This document shows, piece after piece, positions 8,155 to 50,004 of a stretch of 64,000 nt of DNA. The stretch's first letter is position 1. The number at the start of each line of letters is the position of its first letter. Below the pieces are notes generated by a model that worked only from the letters and a program-made list of their open reading frames with translations, searched no databases and was not told the origin of the DNA. The stretch is from the NCBI RefSeq assembly GCF_003917135.1, contig NZ_RPDI01000017.1, positions 1-64,000 of the forward strand. Direction: 5' to 3'. This DNA is from Leucobacter chromiireducens. Lineage in GTDB: Bacteria > Actinomycetota > Actinomycetes > Actinomycetales > Microbacteriaceae. The position numbers and the translations under genes were made by a program.

Positions 8155-8225
8155 GGATCGGGGTCACTTAGGCAGGGTGTCGAGCGTGGAACGGGGCCGA
8201 CACCCTGCCCAACTGACCCGAATCC
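8155..8225. repeat. 71-bp intergenic palindrome, copy 1
   Basis: Arms 8155-8182 and 8198-8225 (28 nt each) with a 15-nt loop. This is the most degenerate of five copies: the stem core GGGTGTCG/CGACACCC is intact, but the outer arm has several mismatches. It lies between marR (8270) and the FMN reductase gene (8076), inside what otherwise looks like one operon. Confidence 0.8.
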
Positions 8226-8269
8226 ACTGAGGCGGGGAGGCCGAGGCGGCGGGGCAGAGCGGGGACGGG

Positions 8270-8722
8270 CTACGCCGCGGGCGGCGCGACGAGCTTCCGC
8301 GCGAGGCGGGTGAGCTCGTGCATCTCGTCGGTGGAGAGCCGGGATCCCACCTCGCGGGCGACGCTCTTCGCGTGTGCCCGGCCGATCTCGCGCTGCACGC
8401 GCGCGCCCTCCGCGGTGAGCGAGACGCGCACCGCGCGGCCGTCGCGTTCGTCGGCGGCGCGTGCGAGGAGCCCGCGTGTGGTGAGCCGGTCGATCATGCG
8501 CGAGAGCGCTGGCTGGCTGAGCAGCACGGCGCTCTGGATCTCACAGATGCGCATGGGGGCGCCGTGCTTGGCGAGCGTGTAGAGCACGTCGTACTCGCGC
8601 ACGCTCGCCTCGCCCCAGATGTGTTCAGCCCCGAAGGTGCCCATGAGGGTGGCGTGAGCGGTCATCAGCGCCTCCCACGACTCGTTGCTGAGCCGAATGT
8701 CAGCGCGCTTCGCGGTGCTCAT
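8270..8722 (-). CDS. MarR-family transcriptional regulator (monooxygenase operon)
   Basis: 150-residue regulator with the MarR winged helix: MRICEIQSAVLLSQPALSRM is the recognition region and ARAADERDGRAVRVSLTAEG the wing, with the conserved D-x-R. The N-terminal helices (WEALMTAHATLMGTF) are dimerisation helices. The start ATG 8722 has GAAAGGAA about 7 nt upstream. It lies 44 bp after the luciferase-like monooxygenase gene and before the FMN reductase gene, so it is probably a local autorepressor. A TTGCATGTAA palindrome in front of the monooxygenase gene (9977-9986) is the best operator candidate. The signal molecule is unknown; the enzymes suggest a small aromatic or redox-active compound. 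Confidence 0.87.
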   Translation of the reverse strand: MSTAKRADIRLSNESWEALMTAHATLMGTFGAEHIWGEASVREYDVLYTLAKHGAPMRICEIQSAVLLSQPALSRMIDRLTTRGLLARAADERDGRAVRVSLTAEGARVQREIGRAHAKSVAREVGSRLSTDEMHELTRLARKLVAPPAA

Positions 8723-8766
8723 GGGCGTTCCTTTCGGATGTCATGCTGGCAGGGTGCTGGCGGGCG

Positions 8767-9951
8767 TTAGAGCCCGAATGAGGCGCCGGGCTTGGCCGCC
8801 GAATCCTGGTAGGGCGAGCCGCCCGTCACGTTGTCGCCGCGGTTGGCGTTCGGTCGGGGCTGGCGGGGCGCCTCGTCGCCGTACTTGGCCTTGACCAGGC
8901 TTTCGTGGCTCGGCGACTCGGGCACCTCTGGGTCTCGGCGCGCGGCCATTTCCGCGCGGAGCACGGGGATGACCTCGGAGCCCAGCATATCGAGCTGCTC
9001 GAGCACCGTCTTGAGCGGCAGGCCAGCGTGGTCGACGAGGAACATCTGCCGCTGGTAGTCGCCGAAGGTCTCACGGAACGTGAGCGTCTTGTCGATGACC
9101 TCCTGCGGGCTGCCGACGGTGAGCGGGGTCTGCTGCGTGAAGTCCTCCATGCGCGGGCCGTGGCCGTAGACGGGGGCCTCGTTGAAGTACGGGCGGAACT
9201 GCGCGACGGCGTCCTGCGACTTCTTCGCGATGAATGCCTGGCCGCCGAGGCCGACGATCGCCTGCTTCTGCGTGCCGTGGCCGTAGTGCTCGAAGCGCTC
9301 GCGGTAGAACTTCACGAGGCGCAGGAAGTGCTCGGACGGCGCGAACAGGTGGTTCGCGAAGAAACCGTCGCCGTAGTACGCGGCCTGCTCGGCGATCTCC
9401 GGGGTGCGGATGGAGCCGTGCCACACGAACGGCGGCACGTCGTCGAGCGGGCGGGGCGTCGAGGTGAAGCCCTGCAGCGGGGTGCGGAAGTTGCCCTCGT
9501 AATCGACGACGTCCTCGCGCCACAGGCGGTGCAGCAGGTTGTAGTTCTCGAGCGCGAGCGGCAGTGCCGAGCGGATGTCTTTGCCGAACCAGGGGTACAC
9601 GGGCGCGGTGTTGCCGCGGCCGAGCATGAGGTCCATGCGACCCTTCGCGAGGTGCTGCAGCATCGCGTACTCCTCGGCGATGCGCACCGGGTCGTTCGTG
9701 GTGATGAGCGTGGTGCTCGTCGAGAGCTTCAGCGTCTTCGTCTGCGCCGCGATGTACGCGAGGAACGTGGTGGGGCTCGACGAGAAGAAGGGTGGGTTGT
9801 GGTGCTCGCCGATTGCGAAGACGTCGAGGCCGACTTCCTCAGCGTGGACGGCGATCTTCGCGAGCCCGTCGATGCGTTCCGCCTCACTGGGCGTGTAGTC
9901 GGCCACCGGGTCGCGCGTGACGTCGCTGACCGAGAAGATCCCAAATTCCAT
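8767..9951 (-). CDS. CE1758-type FMN-dependent luciferase-like monooxygenase
   Basis: 394-residue member of the bacterial luciferase superfamily, a TIM-barrel enzyme that uses FMNH2 and O2 to oxygenate an unidentified substrate. Visible family features are the N-terminal strand MEFGIFSVSD, GLDVFAIGEHHNPPFFSSSP (substrate and flavin pocket with EHH), STSTTLITTNDPVRIAEEYAMLQHLAKGRMDLMLGRGN, the classic barrel segment, and the late VGSPQEVIDKTLTFRE. Start ATG 9951 has GGAGG about 9 nt upstream. The last ~45 residues are a low-complexity hydrophilic tail. It is first in the operon with MarR and the FMN reductase, the usual two-component monooxygenase arrangement. Its promoter region faces that of the ABC/YhgE operon. 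Confidence 0.87.
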   Translation of the reverse strand: MEFGIFSVSDVTRDPVADYTPSEAERIDGLAKIAVHAEEVGLDVFAIGEHHNPPFFSSSPTTFLAYIAAQTKTLKLSTSTTLITTNDPVRIAEEYAMLQHLAKGRMDLMLGRGNTAPVYPWFGKDIRSALPLALENYNLLHRLWREDVVDYEGNFRTPLQGFTSTPRPLDDVPPFVWHGSIRTPEIAEQAAYYGDGFFANHLFAPSEHFLRLVKFYRERFEHYGHGTQKQAIVGLGGQAFIAKKSQDAVAQFRPYFNEAPVYGHGPRMEDFTQQTPLTVGSPQEVIDKTLTFRETFGDYQRQMFLVDHAGLPLKTVLEQLDMLGSEVIPVLRAEMAARRDPEVPESPSHESLVKAKYGDEAPRQPRPNANRGDNVTGGSPYQDSAAKPGASFGL

Positions 9952-9976
9952 GATGCGTGCCTCCGTTTATATGCGC

Positions 9977-9986
9977 TTGCATGTAA
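9977..9986 (-). promoter_or_regulatory. Candidate MarR operator upstream of the monooxygenase gene
   Basis: TTGCATGTAA is a near-perfect palindrome in an AT-rich patch (about 9966-9995), 26-35 bp before the monooxygenase start and just upstream of its GGAGG site. Position and symmetry fit a MarR-family site; binding by the operon's own regulator is inference. Confidence 0.4.
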
Positions 9987-10024
9987 ATGTAACACGGGCA
10001 ATCCGGATCTATTCCCCACTTCAT

Positions 10025-10065
10025 TTGACGATTCGCCCCGCATTGTTTTAGACTGACTAGTCAGT
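10025..10065 (+). promoter_or_regulatory. Promoter and TetR-type operator of the ABC/YhgE operon
   Basis: TTGACG (10025-10030), an 18-bp spacer and TAGACT (10049-10054) form a clear promoter. A perfect 14-bp palindrome ACTGACTAGTCAGT (10052-10065) overlaps the -10 box and the start of transcription, the usual place for a TetR-family repressor. The TetR gene at 13438 ends this operon. Confidence 0.65.
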
Positions 10066-10096
10066 TTAAGAAATCAGCGAAGGATCAAGGATCACC

Positions 10097-10801
10097 GTGA
10101 CCACACTGCACGCCGCGCCCAGCTCAGCGCCCAGCCCCATCAGCGCCGCCCGCGCGCCCGTCGTCGCGCTGAGCGGGGCACTGGTGCGCGGCGAGCACGG
10201 CCCCGTGTTCGGCCCGCTCACCGCGACGAGCGAGCGGCCCATCACCGCGATCGTTGGCACGCGCGGCAGCGGGCGCACCTCGCTGCTGCTCAGCATCGCC
10301 GGGCGTATGCGCCTGCACGAGGGCACGCTCAACACCCTCGGCACGGCGAAGCTCGGCGAGATCCGCCGCCGCACCGGCATCGCCGGCTTCGAGGCGATCG
10401 ACGCGCTCGAGCCGCAGGTCACCGTGAGCGACATCCTCCGCGAGCGGCTCTCCTGGGCGCTGCCGTGGTACCGCCGCGTGCCGCGCATCACGCAGGAGCT
10501 CGCGGCGGATCTGCTCGAACCGGCGTTCGGGGCCACCTCACTGATCCCGATCGAGACGCTGGTGCGCGATCTCACCCCGGCCGCCGAGCAGCTGCTGCGC
10601 ATCGGTCTCGCGCTCCTGGAGGAGCCCGAGCTGCTCGTGCTTGACGACTTCGATGCCCTGCGCGACCCCGCAGATCGGGATCTCGTCGCCGAGCGCCTCA
10701 GCGCCCTCGCCGGGCGCGGCGTCCGCACCGTGTTCGCGACGAGCGACCCGGGCGACGTCGAGCGATTCGCCGCGCTCGAACCGGCCGTGATCGCGCTCTA
10801 A
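10097..10801 (+). CDS. Atypical ABC-type ATPase subunit paired with YhgE/Pip protein
   Basis: 234-residue ABC nucleotide-binding domain with altered catalytic motifs. Walker A reads GTRGSGRT, with Arg60 where Lys is expected. The signature region is LTPAAEQ in place of LSGGQ. Walker B is ELLVLDDFDAL, with Asp in the position of the catalytic Glu. The switch region is ATSD rather than THD. It may bind nucleotide but is unlikely to be a standard transport ATPase. GTG 10097 follows AAGGATC and sits 32 nt after the operator palindrome. The next gene, for a YhgE/Pip membrane protein, begins 34 bp downstream, and a TetR gene follows. Similar small ABC-like proteins are known beside YhgE genes in actinomycetes; the biochemical role is not established. 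Confidence 0.8.
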   Translation: MTTLHAAPSSAPSPISAARAPVVALSGALVRGEHGPVFGPLTATSERPITAIVGTRGSGRTSLLLSIAGRMRLHEGTLNTLGTAKLGEIRRRTGIAGFEAIDALEPQVTVSDILRERLSWALPWYRRVPRITQELAADLLEPAFGATSLIPIETLVRDLTPAAEQLLRIGLALLEEPELLVLDDFDALRDPADRDLVAERLSALAGRGVRTVFATSDPGDVERFAALEPAVIAL

Positions 10802-10835
10802 TCCCACCGACACTCACACAAAGAAGACGAAAGAC

Positions 10836-13361
10836 ATGTCACTGTTCACACGCGGCACCGAGCTGCAACGTTTCCGCAGGGGAACCCTGCCCAAGATCTC
10901 CCTGGTCGTGCTGCTGGTCATCCCGCTCATCTACGGCGCGCTGTACCTGTGGGCGTTCTGGGCCCCGACCGACAACATGGACAAGCTGCCCGTCGCGGTC
11001 GTCAACCTGGACGAGCCGGCCGAGCAGCCGGGCGGTGAGACGCTCACGGCGGGCGACGACGTGCTCGAAGAGCTGCAATCAGGGAAGGATCTCGACTGGC
11101 AGCCACTGGGCGCCGCTGACGCGGCGAGCGCGGTGGCCGACGGCGACGTGTATTTCTCCGTGACGATCCCGAAGGACTTCTCGCGCACGCTTGCCGGGCT
11201 GCAGGACGACCCGAAGGCCGGCACGCTCGAGGTGCAGTACAATGACAACAACTCCTTCCTCGCCTCGACGCTCGGGAAGCAGGCCATGGTGCAGCTGCGC
11301 GACGCGGTTGCCGAGACGACCACGCAGACCGCCGCGGAGCAGGTGCTCGTCGGCGTCGAGAAGCTGAGTGACGGCACGCGCGACGCGGCGGCCGCCGCCG
11401 ACACCCTCGAGTCGGGCACGAAGCAGGTGTCCTCTGGCACGCAGAAGCTGAGCGTCGGGCTCGGGGAACTGGCCGACGGCACCGCGCAGATCGTGGCGAA
11501 GTCGCCAGAGCTCGTCGACGGCACGCAGCGACTGGCCGGTGGCCTCGACACCGCACGCGCCGGGAGCGCGAAGCTGGCCGACGGGAGCGCGAAGCTCGCG
11601 GCGGGCGCCGGCGAAGCCGCCGACAAGTCCGGGCAGCTGCGCGATGGCCTCGGCCAGCTCAGCGAAGGCGCCGGGGCACTCGCCGGCGGCAGCGCCGCGG
11701 TGACCGAGGGCAGCGGCAAGCTCGCCCAGGGTGCAGGGGCGCTGCACTCGGGGGCGAGCGACCTCTCACAGGGCATGCAGCAGTTGAGCGCCGGCACCGT
11801 AACGCTGAACACCAAGGTCGGCGAGCTCGCGGCGGGCGCGGACGCGCTCTCCGCCGGTGTGGGGGACCTCGCCGCCGGCACCGCCAACGCGGCACAGGGC
11901 GCGGCAAGCCTCTCCGAGAACGCGGGTGCGCTCTCGGGCGGCGCGGCTCAGGTGTCCCAGGGCACCGCCGCGATCGCGAGTTTCGCTGCCGCCAATCCTG
12001 CGGCCACCATCGCGGAGCTCGAAGCCGCGCTTGCGGCGAACGGCACCTCGCTTTCCGCGGTCTCCGCGGGCGCGCAGCAGCTGGCTGGGGGCGCCCAGCA
12101 GCTCGCGGGCGGGGCGGATCAGCTGTCGAGCGGGATCGCTGCAGCGAACGCGGGAGCGCAGACGCTCGCCACGAAGTCGGGTGAACTCGCTGGCGGCACG
12201 CACCAGCTGGCAGACAAGACCGGCGAGCTGCAGAGCAGCGCGGCGAAGCTCGCCGACGGCTCGAACACCGTCGCGTCCGGGCTCGGCTCGCTGAGTTCGA
12301 AGGCCAGCGAACTGAACGCCGGCGCGGCGAAGGTGTCGTCGGGGGCTGGCACGCTCGCCGAGAAGTCGACGGTCGCGCGCGACGGCAGCGGGCAGCTGGC
12401 TGCCGGCCTCGGCACGCTCGCCGGGGGAACGCGCGACGCCGCGGCCGGCAGCTCAGCGCTCGCGGCAGGCGTCGGAACCGCCGCCGACGGCGCGAACCAG
12501 CTCGCCGCGGGCGCTGGCCAGCTCGCCGACGGGGCGACGAAGCTGAATGACGGCGCGCAGGAGGCGAGCGCGAAGTCGGGGGAACTCGCGACGGGCGCCA
12601 AGAAGGTCACCGACGGCGCGGACACGTTCGCGTCGAAGCTCGCCGACGGCGCCGAGGAGGCGCCGGAGTTCAGCGCCGGGCAGACCGCGAAGATCGCCGA
12701 GACCATGGCGAAGCCGGTCGCGCTCGACGAGCACACGGAGAACGCGGTGCAGGGCTTCGGCGAGGGCTTCGCCCCGTTCTTCATCGCCCTGGCTTCGTTC
12801 GTCGGCGCGCTGATCACGTGGCTGATCCTGCGCCCGCTGCCCAGGCGCCCGCTCGCCTCGAACGTGTCCGGGCTGCGCTCGGTGCTCGCCGGCTTCTGGC
12901 CGGCCGCGCTGATCGCCGTTGGCCAGGTGGTCATCATGATGCTGGTGCTCGTGTACGGGATCGGCATGCGGCCAACGCACTGGGTGGGCATGGCGGCGTT
13001 CATGCTGCTCGTCACGCTCGCGTTCCTGGCGCTGCAGCAGATGTTCATTGCACTGCTCGGCACGGCTGCGGGACGCGTCGTGAGCCTCGTGCTCCTGATG
13101 CTCCAGCTCTCCTCCTCCGGCGGCACCTACCCGGTGGAGACGACGCCGCAGTTCTTCCAGATCCTGCACCCGTTCATGCCGGCCTCCTACGTGGTCGATG
13201 GGCTGCGGCAGCTGATCGGTGGCGGCATCGACGGGCGTTTCTGGGTGGCGCTCGGGGTGATGACGGCGGTGCTGCTCGGCTCGCTCGCCATCAGCGCGGT
13301 GGCCGCGCGTCGCCAGAAGGTGTGGACGGTCTCGCGGCTCCACCCGGCGCTCGCGATCTAG
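10836..13361 (+). CDS. YhgE/Pip-domain membrane protein (ABC-2/MmpL-like)
   Basis: 841-residue membrane protein. One transmembrane helix near residues 20-42 (LVVLLVIPLIYGALYLWAFW) is followed by the YhgE/Pip N-terminal domain (PVAVVNLDEP, VYFSVTIPKDFS). A long extracytoplasmic region holds many degenerate heptad-like repeats of the xxxLxxGxxxL type (LADGSAKLAAGA, LSEGAGALAGGS and others, about residues 170-610). About five C-terminal helices follow (from ALASFVGALITWLILR to AVLLGSLAISAVAARR), with the SSSGGTYPVETTPQFFQILHPFMP segment typical of the family. Homologues are linked to phage infection (Pip) and to late type VII secretion (EsaA). The ATPase-like upstream gene and downstream TetR suggest an efflux or envelope-export unit. 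Confidence 0.88.
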   Translation: MSLFTRGTELQRFRRGTLPKISLVVLLVIPLIYGALYLWAFWAPTDNMDKLPVAVVNLDEPAEQPGGETLTAGDDVLEELQSGKDLDWQPLGAADAASAVADGDVYFSVTIPKDFSRTLAGLQDDPKAGTLEVQYNDNNSFLASTLGKQAMVQLRDAVAETTTQTAAEQVLVGVEKLSDGTRDAAAAADTLESGTKQVSSGTQKLSVGLGELADGTAQIVAKSPELVDGTQRLAGGLDTARAGSAKLADGSAKLAAGAGEAADKSGQLRDGLGQLSEGAGALAGGSAAVTEGSGKLAQGAGALHSGASDLSQGMQQLSAGTVTLNTKVGELAAGADALSAGVGDLAAGTANAAQGAASLSENAGALSGGAAQVSQGTAAIASFAAANPAATIAELEAALAANGTSLSAVSAGAQQLAGGAQQLAGGADQLSSGIAAANAGAQTLATKSGELAGGTHQLADKTGELQSSAAKLADGSNTVASGLGSLSSKASELNAGAAKVSSGAGTLAEKSTVARDGSGQLAAGLGTLAGGTRDAAAGSSALAAGVGTAADGANQLAAGAGQLADGATKLNDGAQEASAKSGELATGAKKVTDGADTFASKLADGAEEAPEFSAGQTAKIAETMAKPVALDEHTENAVQGFGEGFAPFFIALASFVGALITWLILRPLPRRPLASNVSGLRSVLAGFWPAALIAVGQVVIMMLVLVYGIGMRPTHWVGMAAFMLLVTLAFLALQQMFIALLGTAAGRVVSLVLLMLQLSSSGGTYPVETTPQFFQILHPFMPASYVVDGLRQLIGGGIDGRFWVALGVMTAVLLGSLAISAVAARRQKVWTVSRLHPALAI

Positions 13362-13437
13362 GTCGGTGCGGCGCGGGCGAGTTGGCTCGCGCCGCGCCGG
13401 ATCCCGCACGAATCGCGCAGTAGGGGAAGATAGAGGC

Positions 13438-13998
13438 ATGGCACGCGTCAACACCAAACAGCTCATCACCGAGGCCGCGGTGCGCGTCGCCGCGCAGCAC
13501 GGGATCAGCGGCGCGTCCATGGACCAGATCGCCGAGGCCGCCGGGGTGGCCAAGGGGAGCCTGTACTACAACTTCGCGTCGAAGGACGCGATCTTTGAGG
13601 AAGTGATTCGCGTGGGCTTCGAGAAGCTCGCGGCGGCGATCGACGGGGCCCGAGCGGCTGTCGCTCCGGCCGACGCCCCGCGCGCCGTCGCCGCGGCGAC
13701 GCTCGAAACGCTGCGCGGCAACCTCGACCTCGCGAAGCTCATGGCGTCCGAGGTGTTTCGCACGGATCGGCCGTGGGCCGACACCATGGCGCTCGCGCGC
13801 GGATCGGTGACCGTGCGGTTCCGCGACGTGCTGCGCGCGGCGCGCGAGGCGAACGGCGATCCCCGCTCAGCGGAGACCACCGAGACGGCGGGCGCCGCGT
13901 TCTTCGGGGCCCTCGCTGGCGCCTGCCTCGACTGGCTGCTGTTCCGTGAGGACCAGCCCGTGGAGCTCGTGCTCGACCAGGTGCTCGAGGCGTTCTAG
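13438..13998 (+). CDS. TetR/AcrR-family transcriptional repressor
   Basis: 186-residue regulator. The N-terminal helix-turn-helix is clear: ITEAAVRVAAQHGISGASMD, then IAEAAGVAKGSLYYNFASKD with the conserved YYNFxSKxxL-like end. The C-terminal part is the ligand-binding dimer domain and is not diagnostic. I chose ATG 13438, preceded by GGGGAAGA; the frame stays open upstream but has no TetR features. It closes the ABC/YhgE operon, 76 bp after the YhgE gene. The ACTGACTAGTCAGT palindrome at 10052-10065 in the operon promoter is the likely operator. The ligand is unknown. Confidence 0.88.
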   Translation: MARVNTKQLITEAAVRVAAQHGISGASMDQIAEAAGVAKGSLYYNFASKDAIFEEVIRVGFEKLAAAIDGARAAVAPADAPRAVAAATLETLRGNLDLAKLMASEVFRTDRPWADTMALARGSVTVRFRDVLRAAREANGDPRSAETTETAGAAFFGALAGACLDWLLFREDQPVELVLDQVLEAF

Positions 13999-14020
13999 CC
14001 GCGGCGGCCCCCGCAAACGT

Positions 14021-14059
14021 CGCGCGGCGGCGGCTCCCAGTGGGAACCGCCGCCGCGCG
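14021..14059. terminator. Bidirectional terminator between tetR and aminotransferase genes
   Basis: Arms 14021-14039 and 14041-14059 form a 19-bp near-perfect hairpin (CGCGCGGCGGCGG and complement, TCCCA/TGGGA inner stem) between convergent genes. There is no T-tract, as is common for actinobacterial terminators. Confidence 0.7.
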
Positions 14060-14076
14060 TCGGTGTTCGGTGCGTA

Positions 14077-15279
14077 CTACTCAGACAGCAGCGCCTGGAT
14101 GCGCTGCACGCCCTCCAGGATCGCGTCGTCGCCGAGCGCGTAGCTGAAACGCAGGTAGCCGGACGGGCCGAACGCCTCGCCTGGCACCGCTGCGACCTCG
14201 GCGTGCTCGAGGATGAGGTCAGCGAGCTCGAGCGAGGTGGTCGGAGTGACGCCGCGGACGGGCTTGCCGAGCGCCGCGGTGACGTCCACGTACGCGTAGA
14301 ACGCGCCCTCGGGGGTGGGGCAGGTGAAGCCCGGAACCTTGTTCAGCTCGCTCACGATGAGCTTGCGGCGGCGATCGAACGCGAGACGCATCTCCTCGAT
14401 CGGCTCCTGCGGGCCCGTGAGCGCCGCGATGGCCGCGCGCTGCGCGATGTTGTTGATGTTCGACGTGAGGTGCGACTGCAGGTTCGCTGCGCCCTTGATG
14501 ACGTCGGCGGGGCCGAGCATCCAGCCGAGGCGCCAGCCCGTCATCGCGTAGGTCTTCGCGACGCCGTTGACGAGGATCGCGCGGTCCTGCAGCGCGGGGG
14601 TCGCCTCGACGATCGACACGGCGCGCACGCCGTCGTAGGTGAGGTTCTGGTAGATCTCGTCGGCGATCACCCAGAGGCCGTTCGCGTCCGCCCAGTCGCC
14701 GATCGCCTTCGTCTCCTCCGGCGTGTACACCGCGCCGGTGGGGTTCGACGGCGAGACGAAGAGCAGCACCTTCGTGCGCTCGGTGCGCGCGGCCTCGAGC
14801 TGCGCGACGGTCACCTTGTAGCCCTGATCCGAGCCGGCGAACACCTCGACGGGAACGCCGTCGGCCAGCTGGATCGCCTCGGGGTACGTGGTCCAGTACG
14901 GTGCGGGGAGGAGCACCTCGTCACCCGGATCGAGGAGCGCCTGGAACGCCTGGTAGACGGCCTGCTTGCCGCCGTTCGTGACGATCACCTGTGCGGGATC
15001 GATCGCCCACCCGGAATCGCGCGCGGTCTTTGCGGCGATGGCCTGCTTCAGCTCGGGCAGGCCGGCTGCCGCGGTGTAGCGGAAATTCTTGGGGTCTTCG
15101 AGCGCGGCGCGTGCGGCATCAACGATGTGCTGCGGCGTCGCGAAATCGGGCTCACCGGCGGCGTAGCTGATGACGGGCCGGCCCTCGGCCTGGAGGGCCT
15201 TCGCCTTGGCGTCGACTTTGAGCGTGGCGGACTCGGCGATAGCGCCGAGCTTCTTTGACAGACGAGAGTTGGTGGTCAC
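14077..15279 (-). CDS. aspC: PLP-dependent aspartate-type aminotransferase
   Basis: 400-residue fold-type I aminotransferase (class I/II, subgroup Ib) that exchanges the amino group between aspartate or a related amino acid and 2-oxoglutarate in the cytoplasm. Motifs: [13 protein letters not shown] at the N-terminus, [21 protein letters not shown] (cofactor phosphate site), [13 protein letters not shown] with the invariant Asn, [14 protein letters not shown] with Asp and Tyr contacting PLP, and the Schiff-base Lys in [15 protein letters not shown]. The C-terminal [16 protein letters not shown] has the substrate-carboxylate Arg. GTG 15279 is the first plausible start. A transaminase next to tRNA-Trp/secE is common in related actinomycetes, but here a 791-residue phosphoesterase gene lies between. 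Alanine or aromatic amino acids cannot be excluded as substrates. Confidence 0.87.
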
Positions 15280-15451
15280 GAGGCCAGTCTAAGACGTGCG
15301 GGCGTGCGGCGGGGAATGCGCGCGAGTCGACGGGTGAATCCGGAGTGAAGCAGTGTTCATGCAGCTTTCACACCGAGGCCAAAGCGCCGTCATCCTGTAT
15401 CGACAACTTGGGTTCAGATGTGCCTATCTCGGGCACCGAGGAGAGGAATCC

Positions 15452-17827: not shown

Positions 17828-17839
17828 GCGCCGATGCAC

Positions 17840-17875
17840 GGCATGGCTCCGGCGCCCGCTCGCCGGAGCCATGCC
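17840..17875 (+). terminator. Terminator after the phosphoesterase gene
   Basis: Perfect 15-bp stem GGCATGGCTCCGGCG (17840-17854) with complement 17861-17875 and a 6-nt loop, 12 nt after the stop codon. Confidence 0.8.
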
Positions 17876-19393: not shown

Positions 19394-19464
19394 GGATCGG
19401 GGTCACTTGGGCAGGGTGTCGAGGCCCATCCCGCGCCGACACCCTGCCCGAGTGACCCCGATCC
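19394..19464. repeat. 71-bp intergenic palindrome, copy 2
   Basis: Arms 19394-19421 and 19437-19464 with a 15-nt loop; 27 of 28 positions are Watson-Crick pairs and one is a T/G wobble. It lies between the nusG terminator and the rplK promoter. Confidence 0.9.
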
Positions 19465-34903: not shown

Positions 34904-34940
34904 CCCGCCCTCCCTCCCCGTCCCCACCTCACCCGCATCC

Positions 34941-35011
34941 GGATCGGGGTCACTTGGGCAGGGTGTCGGCGCGGGAGCGTGCGCGACACCCTGCCCAAGT
35001 GACCCCGATCC
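34941..35011. repeat. 71-bp intergenic palindrome, copy 3
   Basis: Arms 34941-34968 and 34984-35011 are perfectly complementary over 28 bp, with a 15-nt loop. It lies between the convergent FHA and putA genes, before their hairpin terminator. Confidence 0.92.
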
Positions 35012-35083
35012 GGGGCGGGGTGGGGCCTGGGCGGCGGTGGGGAGCCGGGCGGTGAGGAGTGGGCGCCCGCAGGAGCGCGCGTT

Positions 35084-40623: not shown

Positions 40624-40652
40624 CGGTTCGGGCTCGCCGCGCGCGGGCTGAG

Positions 40653-40717
40653 CTAAGCGATTCGGCCAAGCCCAGCCCGAATCCCCGATTCGGGCTGGGC
40701 TTGGCCGAATCGCTTAG
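40653..40717. terminator. 30-bp perfect hairpin (bidirectional terminator)
   Basis: Arms 40653-40682 and 40688-40717 are exact complements over 30 bp with a 5-nt loop CCCCG. It lies between the convergent EEP and HAD genes, and its right end overlaps the HAD stop region (40714-40716). The stem is far longer than a typical terminator. Confidence 0.85.
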
Positions 40718-41490: not shown

Positions 41491-41522
41491 TGGGTGCTCC
41501 TGAGCGGTGTGTGGTGGGAAAA

Positions 41523-42305: not shown

Positions 42306-42312
42306 GCCGAAA

Positions 42313-42334
42313 GACTACAAGTTGTCATGACTAG
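42313..42334. promoter_or_regulatory. GntR operator candidate 1
   Basis: Contains AAGTTGTCATGACTA (42319-42333) with the dyad GTCATGAC, 8-29 bp before the gntR-type start codon. It is shared, with two differences, with a site upstream of the divergent oxidase gene. Confidence 0.55.
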
Positions 42335-42430
42335 CTGAGCGGTGCGCGGGTGACATCGCCGTGAACGAATCGTGAAGTTTCTGGACCGATCCCGCGCCCG
42401 CGGTGAACGCTCGGCGAACACCGGCTCCGC

Positions 42431-42445
42431 AAGTTGTGTTGACTA
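42431..42445. promoter_or_regulatory. GntR operator candidate 2
   Basis: AAGTTGTGTTGACTA matches site 1 at 13 of 15 positions and lies 25-39 bp before the FAD oxidase start. It includes TTGACT (42439-42444), a possible -35 box. Confidence 0.55.
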
Positions 42446-42469
42446 CTTTCGGCGGTTCAGGATCGAGGC

Positions 42470-43606: not shown

Positions 43607-43683
43607 GCCGCGACGCCCCGAGCCGCACTGCCCAGCTGTTCCCACCCCATCCCACGCACCGCAGGACACACACAAGGAGAATC

Positions 43684-44592
43684 GTGAAGAAGAACGCCGC
43701 CCTCGCCGCCACCGCGCTGGCCGCCCTCACCCTGGGCCTCGCCGCCTGCGCTCCGGCAGCCGAGGACACCGCCGCAGCGTCGGCCACCTGCCCCGACGGC
43801 AAGATCCGCTTCGGGATCCTGCCCTACGAGGACCCGGAGCGGCTGGAGCCCGCCTACCAGGTGCTCGCGAAGGCCCTCTCGGAGAAGCTCGACTGCGAGG
43901 TCGAGGTGTCCATCACGGAGGACTACGCCGCCGAGGTGCTCGCGATGGAGAACGACCAGCTCGAGATCGCACAGTTCGGGCCGCTCGGCTTCGTGTTCGC
44001 GAACGAGCGCGCGCAGGCCGAGCCGCTCGCCTCCTTCGGTGACGCCGAGGGCAAGCCGACCACCTACACGGGCGGCATCTGGGTGCCGAAGGACTCGAAG
44101 ATCCAGACGATCGAGCATCTGCCGGGCCACACGCTGGCGCTCGGCAGCCCCGGCTCGACGTCGGGCGACGCGCTCCCCATGTCCGCGCTCACCGACGCCG
44201 GCATCGCCGATGAGGTCACCGCCGACTACGCGGGCGGGCACCCCGAGGCGCTCCTCGCCCTCGTGAACGGCACTGTCGACGCTGCGCAGATCAACTCGCA
44301 GACCCTCGCGACGGCGACCGCCGAGGGCACCTTCGACGCGAGCCAGTTCCGCCAGATCTGGGAGTCGAACCCGATCCCGAACGACCCGATCACCGTGCGT
44401 GGCAACCTCCCGCAGGAGTTCCAGGACGCCGTCTCCGAGGCGCTCCTGAGCCTCGACGCGGAGGACGTCGCAGCCGTGTCCGGCTTCCTCGGGGTGGACC
44501 CGGCTGGGCCGCTCATCCCGGCGACCACTGAGGACTACCAGCCGCTCTTCGACCTCGCGGAGACCATGGGCCTCACCGAGGCAGACGTCTAA
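43684..44592 (+). CDS. phnD: Phosphonate ABC transporter, substrate-binding lipoprotein
   Basis: 302 residues. The signal peptide ends in the lipobox LGLAAC with the lipidated Cys22. The mature part is a PhnD-type periplasmic-binding fold (IRFGILPYEDPERLEPAYQ, EIAQFGPLGFVFANE, LALGSPGSTSGDALP, VNGTVDAAQINSQTL), where GSPxSTSG matches the phosphonate-binding loop. GTG 43684 has AAGGAG upstream. Its stop overlaps the phnC ATG (TAATG). It is the extracellular capture component for the organophosphonate metabolised by the two flanking enzymes. Confidence 0.92.
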   Translation: MKKNAALAATALAALTLGLAACAPAAEDTAAASATCPDGKIRFGILPYEDPERLEPAYQVLAKALSEKLDCEVEVSITEDYAAEVLAMENDQLEIAQFGPLGFVFANERAQAEPLASFGDAEGKPTTYTGGIWVPKDSKIQTIEHLPGHTLALGSPGSTSGDALPMSALTDAGIADEVTADYAGGHPEALLALVNGTVDAAQINSQTLATATAEGTFDASQFRQIWESNPIPNDPITVRGNLPQEFQDAVSEALLSLDAEDVAAVSGFLGVDPAGPLIPATTEDYQPLFDLAETMGLTEADV

Positions 44593-45374
44593 TGAGCACC
44601 GTCACCGCACGCAGGGCCGCCGCCCCGGCGGCCGAACGGGAGGTGCTGCTCGATGTGCGGGCCATCTCCAAGAGCTTCGGGGACCGCGTCGTGCTGCAAG
44701 ACATGAGCATGCGCGTGCACGCCGGCGAAGTGGTCGCGTTCCTCGGGGCCAACGGCTCGGGCAAGTCGACCACCCTGCGCGCGGTGAACGGGCTCATCGA
44801 GGCGGACTCCGGCGACATCACGATCGCCGGGGTTCGCCTCACCGAGGCGAGCGGCCAGCGCCGCGCCGAGGCGCGACGCACCGCCGCAACCGTGTTCCAG
44901 AAGATCCACCTCGTGCAGCGCCGCACCGCGCTGCAGAACGTCTGCGCCGGCGGCTTCTCACGGCTCCCCGGCTGGCGCTCGCTGCCGCCGCTCTTCGGGC
45001 GCGAGCTGCAGGAGGAGGCGATGGCCTGCCTCGACCGTGTCGGCCTGGCCGACCGGGCGCACGACCGCGCGGGGAGTCTCTCCGGCGGCCAGCAGCAGCG
45101 CGTCGCGATCGCCCGTGCGCTCTGCCAGCGCCCGCGCATGATCCTCGCCGACGAGCCGGTCTCGGCGCTCGACCCGAAGGCCGCCGACGACGTGATGCAG
45201 CTGCTCCACGACCTCGCGGTGAACGAGGGACTCGGCGTCGCCGCGGTGCTGCACCAGCCGCACCTCGCGCGGGCGTACGCCGACCGGGTGATCGGCCTCC
45301 GCGGCGGGAAGCTCGTCTTCGACGCGCCCACCGCCGACATCGATGACGCCAGCCTGGCGTCCCTCTACCTGTGA
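44592..45374 (+). CDS. phnC: Phosphonate ABC transporter, ATP-binding protein
   Basis: 260-residue ABC ATPase. Walker A GANGSGKST, Q-loop VFQKIHLVQ, signature LSGGQQQRVAIARAL, Walker B MILADEPVSALDP and the switch VLHQP are all intact. The insertion between Walker A and the signature (GGFSRLPGWRSLPPLFGREL) is typical of PhnC. The start ATG overlaps the phnD stop by one base. phnE begins 17 bp after its stop, or overlaps it if GTG 45371 is used. Confidence 0.94.
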   Translation: MSTVTARRAAAPAAEREVLLDVRAISKSFGDRVVLQDMSMRVHAGEVVAFLGANGSGKSTTLRAVNGLIEADSGDITIAGVRLTEASGQRRAEARRTAATVFQKIHLVQRRTALQNVCAGGFSRLPGWRSLPPLFGRELQEEAMACLDRVGLADRAHDRAGSLSGGQQQRVAIARALCQRPRMILADEPVSALDPKAADDVMQLLHDLAVNEGLGVAAVLHQPHLARAYADRVIGLRGGKLVFDAPTADIDDASLASLYL

Positions 45375-45391
45375 TCCCCGAGGAGCCAGCC

Positions 45392-46255
45392 ATGACCGAC
45401 ACCCTCGCCCGCGACCGGGCGCGCGCAACCGAGCAGCCGGCGCACGTCGCAGCGCCGCGCGCGCTCAGCGTTCCCCGCGACCCGCGCGTGCCCTATCGCG
45501 CGGGATCCTGGACCGTGATCATTGTCGTGCTGGTGGTGCTCCACCTGCTCGCGTTTCAGGCAACGGACTTCCGCCCGGAGAAGCTCGTCACCGGCGCGCA
45601 TGGGATGGCGAACTTCCTGTCAGAGGCGTTCCCGCCCGACCTGAGTCCCGAGGTCGTGCAGGCTGGCCTGCACGGCGCGCTCACGACGCTCTGGGTCGGC
45701 CTGCTCGGCACGACCGTGTCGATCCCGCTCGCGCTGCTGCTCGCCGTGCTCGGTGCGCGCACCACGACACCGAACCAGGCCGTCTACCAGGTGGCGCGCG
45801 GCATCCTGTCGTTCTTCCGCGCGGTGCCAGACATCGTGTTCGCCCTCATCTTCGTGACCGCCGTCGGGCTCGGCCCGTTCGCCGGCGTGCTCGCGCTCAT
45901 CGCGCACAACACCGGCGTGATGGGCAAGCTCTGGTCCGAGGCGATGGAGGACATCGACCCCGGTCCTGAGCAGGCGCTCCGCACCGCTGGCGCGAGCCGG
46001 TGGCAGGTGGTCGCGAATGCGACGATCCCGAGCGTGCTGCCCCAGCTCGCCGGTCTGCTGCTCTACCGCTTCGACGTGAACGTACGATCCTCGCTCGTGC
46101 TCGGCCTCGTCGGGGCCGGCGGCATCGGGCTGCTGATCAACAAGTCGATCAAGACGTTCCAGTTCGACGAGATGATGACCTACCTCATCATCATCCTCGT
46201 GGTGATCGTGCTCGTCGACCTCGCATCAGCCTGGATCCGGAAGCGGCTCCAGTAG
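45392..46255 (+). CDS. phnE: Phosphonate ABC transporter, permease
   Basis: 287-residue permease with about six helices (the first is WTVIIVVLVVLHLLAF). The conserved EAA loop of binding-protein-dependent permeases is seen as EQALRTAGASRWQVVANATIPSVLPQ, and the PhnE C-terminal block GLVGAGGIGLLINKSIKTFQFDEMMTYLI is clear. I chose ATG 45392, with GAGGAG 6 nt upstream; GTG 45371, overlapping phnC, is the alternative. Only one permease gene is present, so the channel is probably a homodimer. It is the last gene of the phosphonate unit; a convergent MarR gene lies 41 bp away. Confidence 0.93.
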   Translation: MTDTLARDRARATEQPAHVAAPRALSVPRDPRVPYRAGSWTVIIVVLVVLHLLAFQATDFRPEKLVTGAHGMANFLSEAFPPDLSPEVVQAGLHGALTTLWVGLLGTTVSIPLALLLAVLGARTTTPNQAVYQVARGILSFFRAVPDIVFALIFVTAVGLGPFAGVLALIAHNTGVMGKLWSEAMEDIDPGPEQALRTAGASRWQVVANATIPSVLPQLAGLLLYRFDVNVRSSLVLGLVGAGGIGLLINKSIKTFQFDEMMTYLIIILVVIVLVDLASAWIRKRLQ

Positions 46256-46296
46256 GCCGCGCGGGGCTCCGGCTGGGCGGCTGCGGAGCGCCGCGA

Positions 46297-46854
46297 CTAC
46301 GCCGCGGGGGATCCAGCAGGGGCATCGCCGCGCGCGCAGCGCCCCGACGGGGTGTCGAGCGGCACGCCGTGATCCGCCGTGGCGTTGAAGCGGTGGAGCC
46401 CGGCGCGCAGCTGCTCGAGGTCGGCCGGCGTCCACCCGCTGAAGCGCTCGTGGTAGGCGTCGCCCCACTTCTCGCGGATCGCGTCGATCAGGATCTGCGC
46501 CTGCGCGCTGCACGTGAGGAGCACCACGCGGCGGTCCTCCGGCGACGGCTCAGCCTTGACGAGCCCGAGCTCCCGCAGCTTCGAGATCTGGCGGCTCACC
46601 ACCGCCTTGTCCATGTCCAGCATCTGGCTGATCCCGGTGACGGTGAGCGGGCCCTTCCGCAGGATGAGCTGCAGCACGATCAGGCCGACGCCGCGCAGAT
46701 CCGGGTGCACGTCCTCCGCGTAGCGCGCCCAGCGGCTCCGCGCGAACGCGATCACCTCGGAGAACTCGGCGATGATCTCGGCGATGGTGTCGTCGCTGCC
46801 GTCCGCCGGCCGTGAACGGGCGACGGGCGGCAGCGAGCGATCCTCCATGGTCAT
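46297..46854 (-). CDS. MarR-family regulator of the DHA2 exporter
   Basis: 185 residues, slightly longer than typical MarR because of a C-terminal tail of about 35 residues. The winged helix is evident in LTVTGISQMLDMDKAVVSRQ (recognition helix) and LVKAEPSPEDRRVVLLTCSA (wing with conserved D-R-R). ATG 46854 is 4 bp after the exporter stop, so the genes are cotranscribed; ATG 46848 is an alternative start. Two GTTGAC-N4-GTCAAC palindromes in the exporter promoter (48653-48696) are the probable operators, making this an autoregulated exporter/repressor pair. Confidence 0.87.
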   Translation of the reverse strand: MTMEDRSLPPVARSRPADGSDDTIAEIIAEFSEVIAFARSRWARYAEDVHPDLRGVGLIVLQLILRKGPLTVTGISQMLDMDKAVVSRQISKLRELGLVKAEPSPEDRRVVLLTCSAQAQILIDAIREKWGDAYHERFSGWTPADLEQLRAGLHRFNATADHGVPLDTPSGRCARGDAPAGSPAA

Positions 46855-46858
46855 GACC

Positions 46859-48571
46859 CTAGCGCGCGCTGCCGTCGGGGTCCGAACCGGCAACCCGGCC
46901 GTGGCGCGTCGGCAGGGCGATCGGGCCGGTGGCGTCGACGGGCACGGTCACCGCGTCAGCGGCGCGTCCCTGATCCAGCGCTGCGGTGCCGGCCCCAGCA
47001 TCGCCGGCCTGCTCGCGCATCTCGGCGATCTTCTCCGCGTTGCTCTTCGAGCTGAGCGGGATGTTCGGCAGGAAGATGATCGCGACGAGCGCGATGACCG
47101 CGACCGGGGCTGCGGCGAAGAAGATGTTGCCGATGCTGTGGCCGTACGCCGACTCGACGACGATGCGGATCGGCTCGGGCAGCTCGGCAATCTTCGGCAG
47201 CACGCCGCCCTGCAGCGCCTCAGCGCCGGCGAGCTCGGCTGGCGCGAGCTTCTCGAGCCCCTCCGTGACGTACTGGGTCACCTGGTGCGCGAGCATCGCA
47301 CCCATCGCCGACATGCCAGCGGTGCCGCCGATCGTGCGGAAGAACGTCACCGCCGAGCTCGCCGCGCCCATCTGGGTCGGCGCGACCGTGTTCTGCACGA
47401 CCAGCACGAGGTTCTGCATGGTCATGCCGACGCCAGCGCCCATCACGAACATCGAGACGCCGACGTACCAGTACGACGTGTCGTAGCGCAGCTGCCCCAT
47501 CATGGTGAGGCCGGCGAGCAGCGCGATCGCGCCGGTCACCATGTAGCGCTTCCACTTGCCGGTGCGCGTGATCACCTGGCCAACCACGGTGGAGGAGATC
47601 AGCACGCCGCCCATCATGGGGAGCGTGAGCAGGCTCGCCTCGATCACCGAGCGGCCGCGCGCGAGCTGCATGTACTGGCCGAGGAAGACCGCGGTGCCAA
47701 ACATCGCGAGGCCGACCGCGATGCTCGCGACCACGGAGAGCGTGAACGTGCGGTTGGTGAACATCGCGAGCGGGATCAGCGGCTCCTCAGCGCGGAGCTC
47801 AACGATCCCCGCGAGGATGAGTACGAGCACGCCGCCGCCCACCATGGCCGCGGTCTGCCAGGACCACCAGTCGAAGCTCGAGCCGCCGAGCGTCACCCAG
47901 ATCAGCAGGCTCGAGAAGCCGAGCGAGATGAGGGCAGCGCCCAGGTAGTCGATCTTGATCTTCCGCTTCACCGTCTGCAGGTGCAGCGTGCGCTGCAGCA
48001 TGATGATCGACACGACCGCGATGGGGGCCGCGACGTAGAAGTTCCAGCGCCAGCCGATCGTGTCGGTGATCAGGCCGCCGAGCAGCGGGCCGCCGACGGT
48101 CGCCACCGCCATGATCGCGCCCATGATGCCCATGTACTTGCCGCGCTCGAGCGGGCTGATGATGTCCGCGAGCACGATCTGGCCGAGCACGCCGAGGCCG
48201 CCGGCGCCGAGGCCCTGCAGCACGCGGAACGCGATGAGCCACGACGGCTCCTGCGCGGTGCCCGCGAGCGCCGAGCCGAGCGTGAAGACGATGAGCGCGA
48301 CCTGGAGCAGCACCTTCTTACTCGTGAGGTCGGCGAGCTTGCCCCAGATCGGGGTCGAGATCGCGCTCGCCAGCATAGTCGCGGTGACCACCCAGGTGAA
48401 GGCCGCCTGGGTGCCGCCGATGTCGGCGATGATGATCGGCATCGACGTGCCGACCACGTTCATGGCGAGCATCGACACGAACATGCTGAGGAACAGGCCC
48501 GCGAGCGCGAGGTGCTTCGCGCGGCCGGTGAGGATCGCCCCGGTGGGGGCGGCGGTGTGAACTGCGGTCAT
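46859..48571 (-). CDS. DHA2-family MFS multidrug exporter (14 helices)
   Basis: 570-residue EmrB/QacA-type major facilitator. Predicted 14 helices run from HLALAGLFLSMFVSMLAMNVV to a last span near AVIALVAIIFLPN. Motif A-like GKLADLTSKKVLLQVAL follows TM2, motif C-type LQGLGAGGLGVLGQIVLADI is in the middle, and WRWNFYVAAPIAV is the family W-R-W/x-x-F signature. The C-terminal ~70 residues are hydrophilic. I chose ATG 48571, preceded by AAGGAT; the upstream in-frame extension crosses the promoter. It is transcribed from a strong TTGACG-17-TATAGT promoter carrying two palindromes and is followed by the marR gene. Confidence 0.9.
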   Translation of the reverse strand: MTAVHTAAPTGAILTGRAKHLALAGLFLSMFVSMLAMNVVGTSMPIIIADIGGTQAAFTWVVTATMLASAISTPIWGKLADLTSKKVLLQVALIVFTLGSALAGTAQEPSWLIAFRVLQGLGAGGLGVLGQIVLADIISPLERGKYMGIMGAIMAVATVGGPLLGGLITDTIGWRWNFYVAAPIAVVSIIMLQRTLHLQTVKRKIKIDYLGAALISLGFSSLLIWVTLGGSSFDWWSWQTAAMVGGGVLVLILAGIVELRAEEPLIPLAMFTNRTFTLSVVASIAVGLAMFGTAVFLGQYMQLARGRSVIEASLLTLPMMGGVLISSTVVGQVITRTGKWKRYMVTGAIALLAGLTMMGQLRYDTSYWYVGVSMFVMGAGVGMTMQNLVLVVQNTVAPTQMGAASSAVTFFRTIGGTAGMSAMGAMLAHQVTQYVTEGLEKLAPAELAGAEALQGGVLPKIAELPEPIRIVVESAYGHSIGNIFFAAAPVAVIALVAIIFLPNIPLSSKSNAEKIAEMREQAGDAGAGTAALDQGRAADAVTVPVDATGPIALPTRHGRVAGSDPDGSAR

Positions 48572-48652
48572 TCGGGTGTGGGATCCTTCGCGACGGGAGT
48601 GGAGCGCAGCGTCGGTGGTCGAACCCCGTGGGGACCGCCGACGGCGCAAGTT

Positions 48653-48696
48653 GTTGACGAGGGTCAACTATAGGGGATTCGTTGACCGCCGTCAAC
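48653..48696 (-). promoter_or_regulatory. Exporter promoter with two MarR-type palindromes
   Basis: On the minus strand TTGACG (48695-48690), a 17-bp spacer and TATAGT (48672-48667) form a near-consensus promoter. Two identical palindromes GTTGAC-N4-GTCAAC lie at 48653-48668 and 48681-48696, 28 bp apart: one covers the -35 box, the other the region just after the -10 box. This is the expected geometry for tight repression. The rest of the 378-bp gap 48572-48949 holds a leader of about 90 nt, palindrome copy 4 and the DUF559 upstream region. Confidence 0.75.
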
Positions 48697-48757
48697 TACC
48701 TGCGGGGCGGGTGGCCCGGGGCTGTCCGGGCCGTCCGGCTGTCCCGCCACCTCCAGG

Positions 48758-48828
48758 CGATCGGGGTCAGTTCGGCAGGGTGTTGCGGTCCCCGGCTGCG
48801 CGACACCCTGCCGAACTGACCCCGATCC
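48758..48828. repeat. 71-bp intergenic palindrome, copy 4 (compensatory variant)
   Basis: Arms 48758-48785 and 48801-48828 with a 15-nt loop. Relative to the other copies, two bases of the left arm (CACTTGG to CAGTTCG) and their partners in the right arm (CCAAGTG to CGAACTG) have both changed, preserving pairing. It lies between divergent genes. Confidence 0.9.
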
Positions 48829-48949
48829 CGGGGGCGGGCGGGGCCGCGGCGTCGCTCACAGGCGAAGGGGGTACCGAGTTGTCCACTGTTCGTGCGTGCC
48901 TGGGAATCTCCGCACGGCGGGATGGCGGAATGGTGAGATCCTCGCCGGC

Positions 48950-49867
48950 ATGACCGAACGCTCGCCGATTCGCGCCAGGCCCGAGGCCTATCAGGTGGCC
49001 GAGCTGCGCGCGGGCGGGGTGTCTCGCAGCCGCCTCAGGGGCGCGGACGTGCGCAGAATCGGGCGAGGCATCGTGCTCCATCCAGGCGCTCGCTACGATC
49101 ACGGCAGTGCCCGCGACCGAACGATCGCCGTCGGCCAAGCGCTCTCGAAGGAGTTCTTCGTATCGCGGCGATCTGCTGCACTGCTCTGGGGAATGCCGTC
49201 ACCGCCGCCCGCGAACGGACGCGTCGAGGTGGGCTCGTTCAGCCCGCTGCGTGCGCCGCGCCGGCCCAGTGTTCAGGGGCACCGGGTGAAGAGCGGTGTG
49301 CTGCACTGGTCACGCCGGGCGGAACTCACGGTTCCCACTGCGGAAGACGTGTGGTGTCAACTCGCAGCGGTCGTCCCCCTCTCCACGCTCATCGTCGTGG
49401 GGGACTTCCTCATCTCGGGGAACTGGGTGCCGGTTGGTCGGACGCCACCGCTCTCGACGCTCGCCACGCTCGAAGCTGCGACTCGGCGGCACCGGGGCAC
49501 GACCGGCGCGCCCGCGAGGCGCGCCGCCCTCCCTCGCCTTCGCACTCCGGTGGACTCCCCGCCGGAAACCGAGTTGCGGCTGCTGATTGAGGATGCCGGC
49601 TTCCCCGAACCTCGCGTGAACTGCCCGATTCAGCTCGGCTCGAGCACGCTGCACGCTGATCTCGGGTACCCGGAACAGCGCGTAGCGATCGAGTACGAGG
49701 GGGCGCACCACTTCCAGGATCCCGGTCAAGTGCGGCGTGATCTCGAGCGGATTGAGCGGATGAGTGCCGCCGGGTGGCAGGTGCTGAGGGCGACCGCGCG
49801 CACACTCCGCGATCCGACCCAGTTCCTCAGGGGACTCGCCCTGGCGCTCTCCCGCGCGGCTGGGTAA
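48950..49867 (+). CDS. DUF559-domain protein (putative VSR/restriction-like endonuclease fold)
   Basis: 305 residues. The N-terminal half resembles the winged-helix part of AbiEi-like proteins (AYQVAELRAGGVSRSRLRGA). The C-terminal DUF559 nuclease-like domain has PPETELRLLIEDAGFPEPRV, ADLGYPEQRVAIEYEGAHHF (the E...D-x...E-x-E-like metal-site core) and a final helical part. Such proteins are common single genes in actinomycetes, with unknown substrate; a role in DNA repair or defence is unproven. ATG 48950 has no good ribosome-binding site. It stands alone between two 71-bp palindromes (copies 4 and 5). Confidence 0.75.
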   Translation: MTERSPIRARPEAYQVAELRAGGVSRSRLRGADVRRIGRGIVLHPGARYDHGSARDRTIAVGQALSKEFFVSRRSAALLWGMPSPPPANGRVEVGSFSPLRAPRRPSVQGHRVKSGVLHWSRRAELTVPTAEDVWCQLAAVVPLSTLIVVGDFLISGNWVPVGRTPPLSTLATLEAATRRHRGTTGAPARRAALPRLRTPVDSPPETELRLLIEDAGFPEPRVNCPIQLGSSTLHADLGYPEQRVAIEYEGAHHFQDPGQVRRDLERIERMSAAGWQVLRATARTLRDPTQFLRGLALALSRAAG

Positions 49868-49933
49868 CCCACCCCCGCCCGACCCGCGCCCCCCCTAATG
49901 TCCCCGCCCCGCGCCCAGGCGCCCGCACTCTCA

Positions 49934-50004
49934 GAATCGGGGTCACTTGGGCAGGGTGTCGGGCCCCGCTGCCAGGCGACACCCTGCCCAAGTGACCCCG
50001 ATCC
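49934..50004. repeat. 71-bp intergenic palindrome, copy 5
   Basis: Arms 49934-49961 and 49977-50004, nearly perfect (one mismatch near the outer end), with a 15-nt loop. It lies between the DUF559 gene and purK, 90 bp before the purK start. Confidence 0.92.

What the first reader, a model, noticed from the sequence alone, without database searches (positions are those of the whole stretch)
8155..50004. Five copies of an exactly 71-bp intergenic palindrome with a fixed 15-nt loop
Copies at 8155-8225, 19394-19464, 34941-35011, 48758-48828 and 49934-50004 share 28-nt arms (core GGGTCACTTGGGCAGGGTG), and all have a loop of exactly 15 nt with unrelated loop sequence. Every copy is intergenic, but contexts differ: inside an apparent operon, between nusG and rplK, convergent, divergent, and tandem. 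They are too uniform and too position-independent to be ordinary terminators. Conserved arms with a length-fixed but sequence-free loop suggest selection for a cruciform or RNA hairpin of set geometry, or a mobile REP-like element. No REP-associated transposase is visible in the window.
Basis: seen in the sequence. Interest (0 to 1): 0.8.

Follow-up and report, generated by a model that had tools for sequence, protein, structure and literature searches.

The report
Dispersed palindromes tied to a nuclease
The repeated 71-base palindrome looks like the scattered recognition site of a DNA-cutting enzyme whose own gene sits between two of the copies, and related bacteria carry differently spelled versions of the same enzyme-and-site pair.

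Summary
All five copies exist, and the genome (a Leucobacter, by kinship to a named contig) has 39: 37 with a 15-nt loop, 2 with 16. They do not look like ordinary terminators, and no REP-type (Y1) transposase was found in 54 genus genomes.

ORF 48896-49867 lies between copies 48758 and 49934 and encodes an AbiEi-like head fused to a Vsr/I-Bth0305I-like nuclease. Homologues in Leucobacter and Arthrobacter are often flanked by palindromes on both sides: arms particular to the nuclease, equal spacing, different loops. An unrelated arm family shows the same layout, with 18 and 14 site pairs in two genomes.

Outer lengths are almost always 49/50 or 59/60 bp. Published AbiEi-type operators are two 23-bp inverted repeats 3 or 13 bp apart (PMC7319586, passages), which gives 49 and 59.

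Best reading: a nuclease-linked, REPIN-like population of sites bound by a nuclease dimer. Binding, cutting and dispersal are inferred, not shown.

The parts
8155..8225 (.). palindrome copy 1 (24 of 28 arm positions paired), tandem genes; not found at the orthologous place in the sister genomes G007 and G029
19394..19464 (.). palindrome copy 2, between nusG and rplK; G007 has it at the same place, G029 has a shorter spacer without it; a separate terminator-like hairpin follows nusG in all three
34941..35011 (.). palindrome copy 3 (28 of 28 paired), convergent genes; G029 has a palindrome with different arms at this place
48758..48828 (.). palindrome copy 4, upstream of the nuclease gene (121 bp before its ATG at 48950)
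48896..49867 (+). nuclease gene: AbiEi-like head (about residues 2-198 counted from ATG 48950) and Vsr/I-Bth0305I-like nuclease tail (about 203-305); start may be GTG 48896 or ATG 48950
49934..50004 (.). palindrome copy 5, downstream of the nuclease gene (66 bp after its stop)

Best explanation
The palindromes are a genome-wide population of recognition sites for one enzyme family: a fusion of an AbiEi-type winged-helix head with a Vsr/EDxHD-type nuclease, encoded in this genome at 48896-49867 between two of the sites. Each arm is one half-site; two subunits bind the inverted arms on the same face of the double helix, which is why the spacer has a fixed length but free sequence and why its length changes in steps of one helical turn. 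The nuclease tails meet over the spacer and probably cut there. The gene with its two flanking sites is the source unit. The dispersed solo sites are its spread, maintained and co-evolving offspring, analogous to REPINs around a RAYT gene but with an unrelated enzyme. SHOWN here: site geometry, copy number, flanking of the gene, co-divergence of arms and nuclease, fold assignment of a predicted model. INFERRED: binding, dimerisation on the site, cutting in the spacer, and that the enzyme spreads or preserves the sites.
Against: No biochemistry. Not every homologue has palindromes: 31 of 56 loci did not show matching arms on both sides by the automatic test, some though not all of them because another stem scored higher, and a second homologue in this genome (L356) shows none. 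Three weaker homologues in Arthrobacter loci (L141, L174, L180) lie kilobases from the GGGTCA palindrome. The random control windows include coding DNA, while the flanks are mostly intergenic. Arms co-vary at positions that look free for a protein (29 symmetric double changes in 18 of 27 orthologous elements), which a pure half-site model does not require and a hairpin model would. G011 keeps 14 site pairs although its nuclease gene is broken. No Foldseek match of the model reaches E 0.001 (best 8e-3). Where the 23-bp arm is taken to begin is my choice; only the 10-bp step is free of that choice.
Confidence: 0.78

Rival explanations
1. Bidirectional transcription terminators or RNA-processing hairpins: the transcript folds into a 28-bp stem at gene ends in both directions.
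For: Enriched between convergent genes: 16 convergent, 13 tandem, 5 divergent in the own genome against 21/39/25 for all gaps of 100 bp or more in the same loci; 43/19/4 against 36/155/73 in the mostly Arthrobacter loci. Very stable RNA fold for the copy at 34941 (-92.9 kcal/mol, z -15.3). Arms co-vary.
Against: No T-run: T is 8.5% and G 66% in the 10 nt after the stem in this genome. At nusG a separate terminator-like hairpin lies between the stop codon and the palindrome, and G029, without the palindrome, keeps it. RNA gives no reason for spacer lengths in 10-bp steps, for near-uniform arms genome-wide, for arms that switch together in another species, or for the flanked nuclease gene.
Confidence: 0.1
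2. A chromosome-organising or regulatory site set: the AbiEi-nuclease protein (or another protein) uses the sites as landmarks or roadblocks and no longer cuts; dispersal was by ordinary recombination.
For: 27 of the 30 G007 copies found in the fetched stretches lie at the place of a G000 copy; arms are kept (90.6% identical) while loops are near random; sites avoid divergent gaps.
Against: Active-site residues of the nuclease are invariant in 30 of 30, which passive use does not need. Sites also differ between close relatives (window copy 1 not found in G007 or G029).
Confidence: 0.25
3. REP/REPIN elements mobilised by a Y1 (RAYT/IS200-type) transposase acting on single-stranded hairpins.
For: Inverted conserved arms with diverse spacer and dispersed intergenic copies, as REPINs are described in PMC8049555 (passages).
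Against: PF01797 was found in 0 of 54 Leucobacter genomes, while 5 of 14 control genomes ring. Helical-turn spacing steps argue for duplex DNA. No common tag beside the palindrome is seen by eye.
Confidence: 0.02
4. The sites are scars of repeated insertion and excision of a homing-type element: the nuclease gene moves between palindromes, leaving solo sites behind.
For: The gene is bounded by a site on each side in many loci; in G029 the MFS-purK interval lacks both gene and sites; the nuclease tail resembles a homing endonuclease.
Against: Homologues are few per genome (4 in G000) against 39 sites; no place was found that holds the gene in one genome and a solo site in another; the 7 strong gene-bearing genome-contig loci share a chromosomal neighbour on at least one side, as for vertical inheritance.
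Confidence: 0.2

Closest known systems
REPIN-RAYT systems (REP doublets with TnpAREP)
   Same: dispersed intergenic units of two inverted conserved arms with a free spacer; dedicated enzyme gene with few copies; arms differ between species
   Different: the enzyme is not a Y1/HuH transposase (0 of 54 genomes); arms are long; spacer steps suggest duplex recognition; the gene lies directly between two copies
AbiEi antitoxin/repressor and its operator (type IV toxin-antitoxin AbiE; Rv2827c)
   Different: here fused to a nuclease, with no toxin-type hit among the four nearest neighbours, and sites are dispersed over the genome
I-Bth0305I and other EDxHD homing endonucleases; Vsr
   Different: lies between housekeeping genes, not known to sit in an intron or intein; different DNA-binding head; many target-like sites in the host genome
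Engineered zinc-finger or TAL nucleases (comparison recalled, not from a call)
   Same: two long inverted half-sites, free spacer of set length, nuclease domains meeting over it
   Different: natural, and the site family co-diverges with the protein

Membership tests
REP/REPIN-RAYT | Y1 (RAYT) transposase in the genome | tested here: not met
   PF01797: 0 of 54 genus genomes; 5 of 14 control genomes positive
REP/REPIN-RAYT | two inverted conserved arms separated by a diverse spacer, dispersed between genes | tested here: met
   definition from PMC8049555 passages
REP/REPIN-RAYT | GTAG/CGTC-type tag beside the hairpin | tested here: inconclusive
   no common tag seen by eye in the 10 nt beside 39 copies; no motif search was run
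intrinsic terminator | hairpin followed by a T-run | tested here: not met
   T 8.5%, G 66% in the 10 nt after the stem, 39 copies pooled
EDxHD/Vsr-type nuclease | Vsr-like fold with conserved acidic/His site | tested here: met
homing endonuclease (functional sense) | cuts a site and is copied into it | not testable with these tools
   no data on cleavage or copying
AbiE type IV toxin-antitoxin | two-domain AbiEi fold | tested here: met
AbiE type IV toxin-antitoxin | adjacent AbiEii nucleotidyltransferase toxin | tested here: not met
   the two neighbours on each side in the window hit MarR, MFS, PurK and AIRC families only
MITE of a DDE transposon | terminal inverted repeats shared with an autonomous transposase element | tested here: inconclusive
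   the 76 core matches in G000 are the two arms of 38 palindromes, so no solo arm at up to 3 mismatches; transposase families were not searched

The most novel reading that the evidence does not exclude
A previously undescribed class of genome-resident site families driven by AbiEi-EDxHD fusion nucleases: each nuclease lineage owns a palindromic code of two long half-sites at helical-turn spacing, cuts in the spacer, and by break repair spreads, resets the loop and homogenises the arms of tens of sites. Protein and site code evolve together, so that sister species can carry a site at the same place but spelled for a different enzyme.
Probability: 0.45. Interest if true: 0.92.

Novelty: categorically new. 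Interest (0 to 1): 0.85.

Why it matters
From general knowledge, dispersed REP-type palindromes in bacteria are explained through one enzyme type, Y1 transposases. A second, unrelated enzyme linked to such a population would suggest that REP-like systems arose more than once and would give a direct test of how they persist. The family also offers many natural pairs of a long palindromic DNA code and the protein presumed to read it, which makes the rules of AbiEi-type DNA recognition testable from sequence.

Tried and rejected
Terminator, RNA hairpin, REP/RAYT: see rivals. Phage or plasmid origin of the palindrome: no match in viral contigs (exact outer 10-mers), phages or plasmids. Nuclease relatives in viral contigs are only partial and weak (11 loci); no clear pair of flanking palindromes was seen in the 7 of them scanned. 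Three Arthrobacter plasmid homologues: in L387 and L388 palindromes with related arms lie on both sides of the match; in L389 only one was seen. Rfam at gathering cut-offs: only a tRNA in the window. PADLOC: nothing for the window protein, a weak hit for one of two homologues given with it. NCBIfam: nothing. Pfam hits of the window protein are below the curated cut-offs; 22 of 30 homologues hit PF18741 and 20 of 30 PF04480 at E 0.01. So the family call rests on profile, fold and conserved residues. One search used too loose a pattern and told nothing.

A guess that genome-specific palindromes beside nusG in G023, G049 and G022 also flank nuclease genes was made by eye; the profile did not detect a gene there, so it is not counted.

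Literature: no paper linking this nuclease to repeats was seen in the listings of ten searches of the held open library (not all were aimed at that question). That library lacks most subscription papers and all bioRxiv preprints, so this is weak evidence of novelty. Passages only were read of PMC12306157, PMC3710099, PMC8049555, PMC8266576, PMC3943268 and PMC7319586. The I-Bth0305I primary paper is not held.

Caveats on counts: gene context rests on my own codon-based caller, which missed the nuclease gene (score 6 for a part of it, below the cut-off of 12), so copies 48758 and 49934 are both classed divergent though 49934 is tandem once the gene is counted; the background gaps include the palindrome-bearing ones. 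One search drew 299 genomes evenly from a larger family; 4 of its 6 positives are in the same genus. One search listed G001, G006 and G008 in full, G024 in part and G049 and G025 not at all. (loops 183 of 390, arms 1421 of 1568) includes one wrongly paired element, dropped (27 pairs). In one search, L246 and L318 are the same G007 locus. One search used 24 of 58 loci, those whose two flanks agree, which favours clear cases. In G029 16 of 23 matches form 8 pairs; 7 arms had no partner within 3 mismatches. In one search three arms of G051 and five of G011 had no partner within 2 mismatches.
Full report
OBSERVATION. The five copies are present exactly where stated, each 71 bp with 28-nt arms and a 15-nt loop. 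The genome that holds the window (3.2 Mb, 93 contigs) has 39 complete copies. 37 have a 15-nt loop and 2 have 16. Arms are nearly uniform, loops are unrelated. At up to 3 mismatches the core is found 38 times on each strand, which is the two arms of 38 palindromes, against 0 and 1 for the reversed control. So this is a real, genome-wide family. The genus is Leucobacter: a same-genus genome (G007) is letter for letter L. chromiireducens L-1 at the two places compared.

DISTRIBUTION. A covariance model finds the family in 18 of 54 genus genomes, and in 6 of 299 genomes drawn from the family, 4 of these 6 again in the genus. It was not found in viral contigs, phage or plasmid records.

GEOMETRY. 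With the gap left free over 31 lengths, the outer GGGT..ACCC length was 49, 50, 59 or 60 in 59 of 59 sites of four genomes (24, 16, 2 and 17). A second pattern gave 49 in 23 of 23 sites of G001 and 20 of 20 of G006, and 49, 50, 59 or 60 in 26 of 27 of G008, the other being a 35-bp match without the arms; G024 was listed in part, with two matches of 53 and 60 bp that lack the arms, and G049 and G025 were not listed. Among sequences held: G000 35 at 59 and 2 at 60, G007 28 at 59, named contigs 112 at 49, 4 at 48, 1 at 50, 6 at 59, 1 at 60, 1 at 66. A step of 10 bp is one helical turn. RNA gives no reason for that; two proteins on one face of duplex DNA do.

ARMS. Both arms change together: pairing and double changes exceed all 500 shuffles. 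Between sister species 29 positions changed in both arms with symmetry kept, in 18 of 27 orthologous elements; 7 changed in both without symmetry, and 68 in one arm only. In Arthrobacter a variable triplet is the same in both arms in 71 of 109 sites against 19.9 by shuffling. Loops at orthologous sites are close to random (183 of 390 identical, random 40%), more diverged than fourfold sites of nearby genes (59.5% identical), while arms keep 90.6%. So arms and length are kept and the loop is free.

POSITION. Convergent gaps are enriched and divergent ones depleted. At nusG a terminator-like hairpin, with a clear T-run in G007 and G029, precedes the place of the palindrome, and G029, without the palindrome, keeps it. 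There is no T-run after the palindromes of this genome.

THE LINK. In Arthrobacter the homologue lies between two palindromes in L128, L151, L187 and, with a variant left copy, L135; L147, L149 and L209 show one side (L147 and L149 are cut by the fetched stretch); three weaker homologues (L141, L174, L180) lie kilobases away from the palindrome. In Leucobacter it lies between two in G000, G007, G002, G008, G023, G053 and, with other arms, in G033, G026, G031, G047, G005, G051, G025, G022 and others. Strong palindromes occur in 60.5% of 114 nuclease flanks against 7.8% of 102 random windows of the same loci, which include coding DNA. Left and right arms agree in 25 of 56 loci against 3.4% of 3193 cross pairs. 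The spacing of the two is equal in 24 of 26 that could be compared, off by one in another. Arm similarity follows nuclease similarity. Not all homologues show this: L356, a second homologue in this genome, has none.

GENERALITY. The arm GTGTAGCCATATTGC, taken from the flanks of the G051 nuclease, occurs as 18 pairs in G051 and 14 in G011, at one distance (36 bases start to start; one of the 32 pairs at 37), and 0 to 4 times in each of the other 52 genomes. In both genomes the nuclease gene lies between two of the pairs; in G011 the gene is broken. In G029 a family with arms near ATCGCATCGACTTTGATCC has 8 pairs at one distance and 7 arms without a partner in the search. Its nuclease carries a matching palindrome on one side, and at the place of window copy 3 it has these arms while the flanks align with G007. 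So one place keeps its site while the spelling differs between species.

MECHANISM. AbiEi binds two 23-bp inverted repeats 3 bp apart, and Rv2827c pairs of 23-bp repeats 13 bp apart (PMC7319586, passages): 49 and 59 bp in total, the two lengths that dominate here. I-Bth0305I dimerises on a target of nearly 60 bp (PMC3943268, passages). I therefore propose that two subunits bind the two arms and that the nuclease tails act in the spacer. Binding, cutting and any role in spreading or keeping the sites are inference. The arm-to-arm covariation is not explained by binding alone; break repair templated by the other arm, or selection for a hairpin stage, could add it.

NOVELTY. It works like a REPIN-RAYT system by layout but fails that membership test on its defining enzyme. 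It shares folds with AbiEi and EDxHD nucleases without being shown to be either system. No paper describing it was seen in ten searches of an open library that misses much of the literature.

Noticed in passing
flanks of the 39 own-genome copies, e.g. window 34904-35048: The nearest 10 bp are C-rich on the left (61%) and G-rich on the right (66%), a skew that fades by about 80 bp, whichever way genes run. Within 80 bp, G-quadruplex motifs occur in 26 right and 23 left flanks of 39 on the strand leading away and in 0 and 1 on the other strand. Arthrobacter shows a weaker A/C to G/T version within 20 bp (95 sites). Possibly linked to how the sites arise.
   Followed up: partly
window 8155-8225: By eye this copy, with its skewed flanks, looks like an insertion of roughly 100-150 bp relative to both sister genomes, so sites may still appear in new places.
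   Followed up: partly
window 40653-40717: A perfect 31-bp hairpin with a 3-nt loop and arms unlike this family.
   Followed up: no
window 532-579: Hairpin with 20-nt arms (one mismatch) and an 8-nt loop, AAGTGGCAAACCGACCCTTC arm.
   Followed up: no
G008 contig C1; G001 contig C1: Of 26 arm-bearing G008 sites, 25 are on the 2.82-Mb contig C1 and all 25 lie below 1.70 Mb, the other is on C2; in G001 22 of 23 lie below 2.51 of 3.56 Mb: a possible regional bias. Origin positions unknown.
   Followed up: no
L229 153-213 and 1244-1306 (G023): A third palindrome family in G023, CACCGATTCGACGAAA..GCATACA with a 15-nt loop, two copies near nusG.
   Followed up: no
G011:C1:324901-325877 (L375): Nuclease homologue broken into two frames with an in-frame stop, yet both flanking palindromes and dispersed copies remain.
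   Followed up: no
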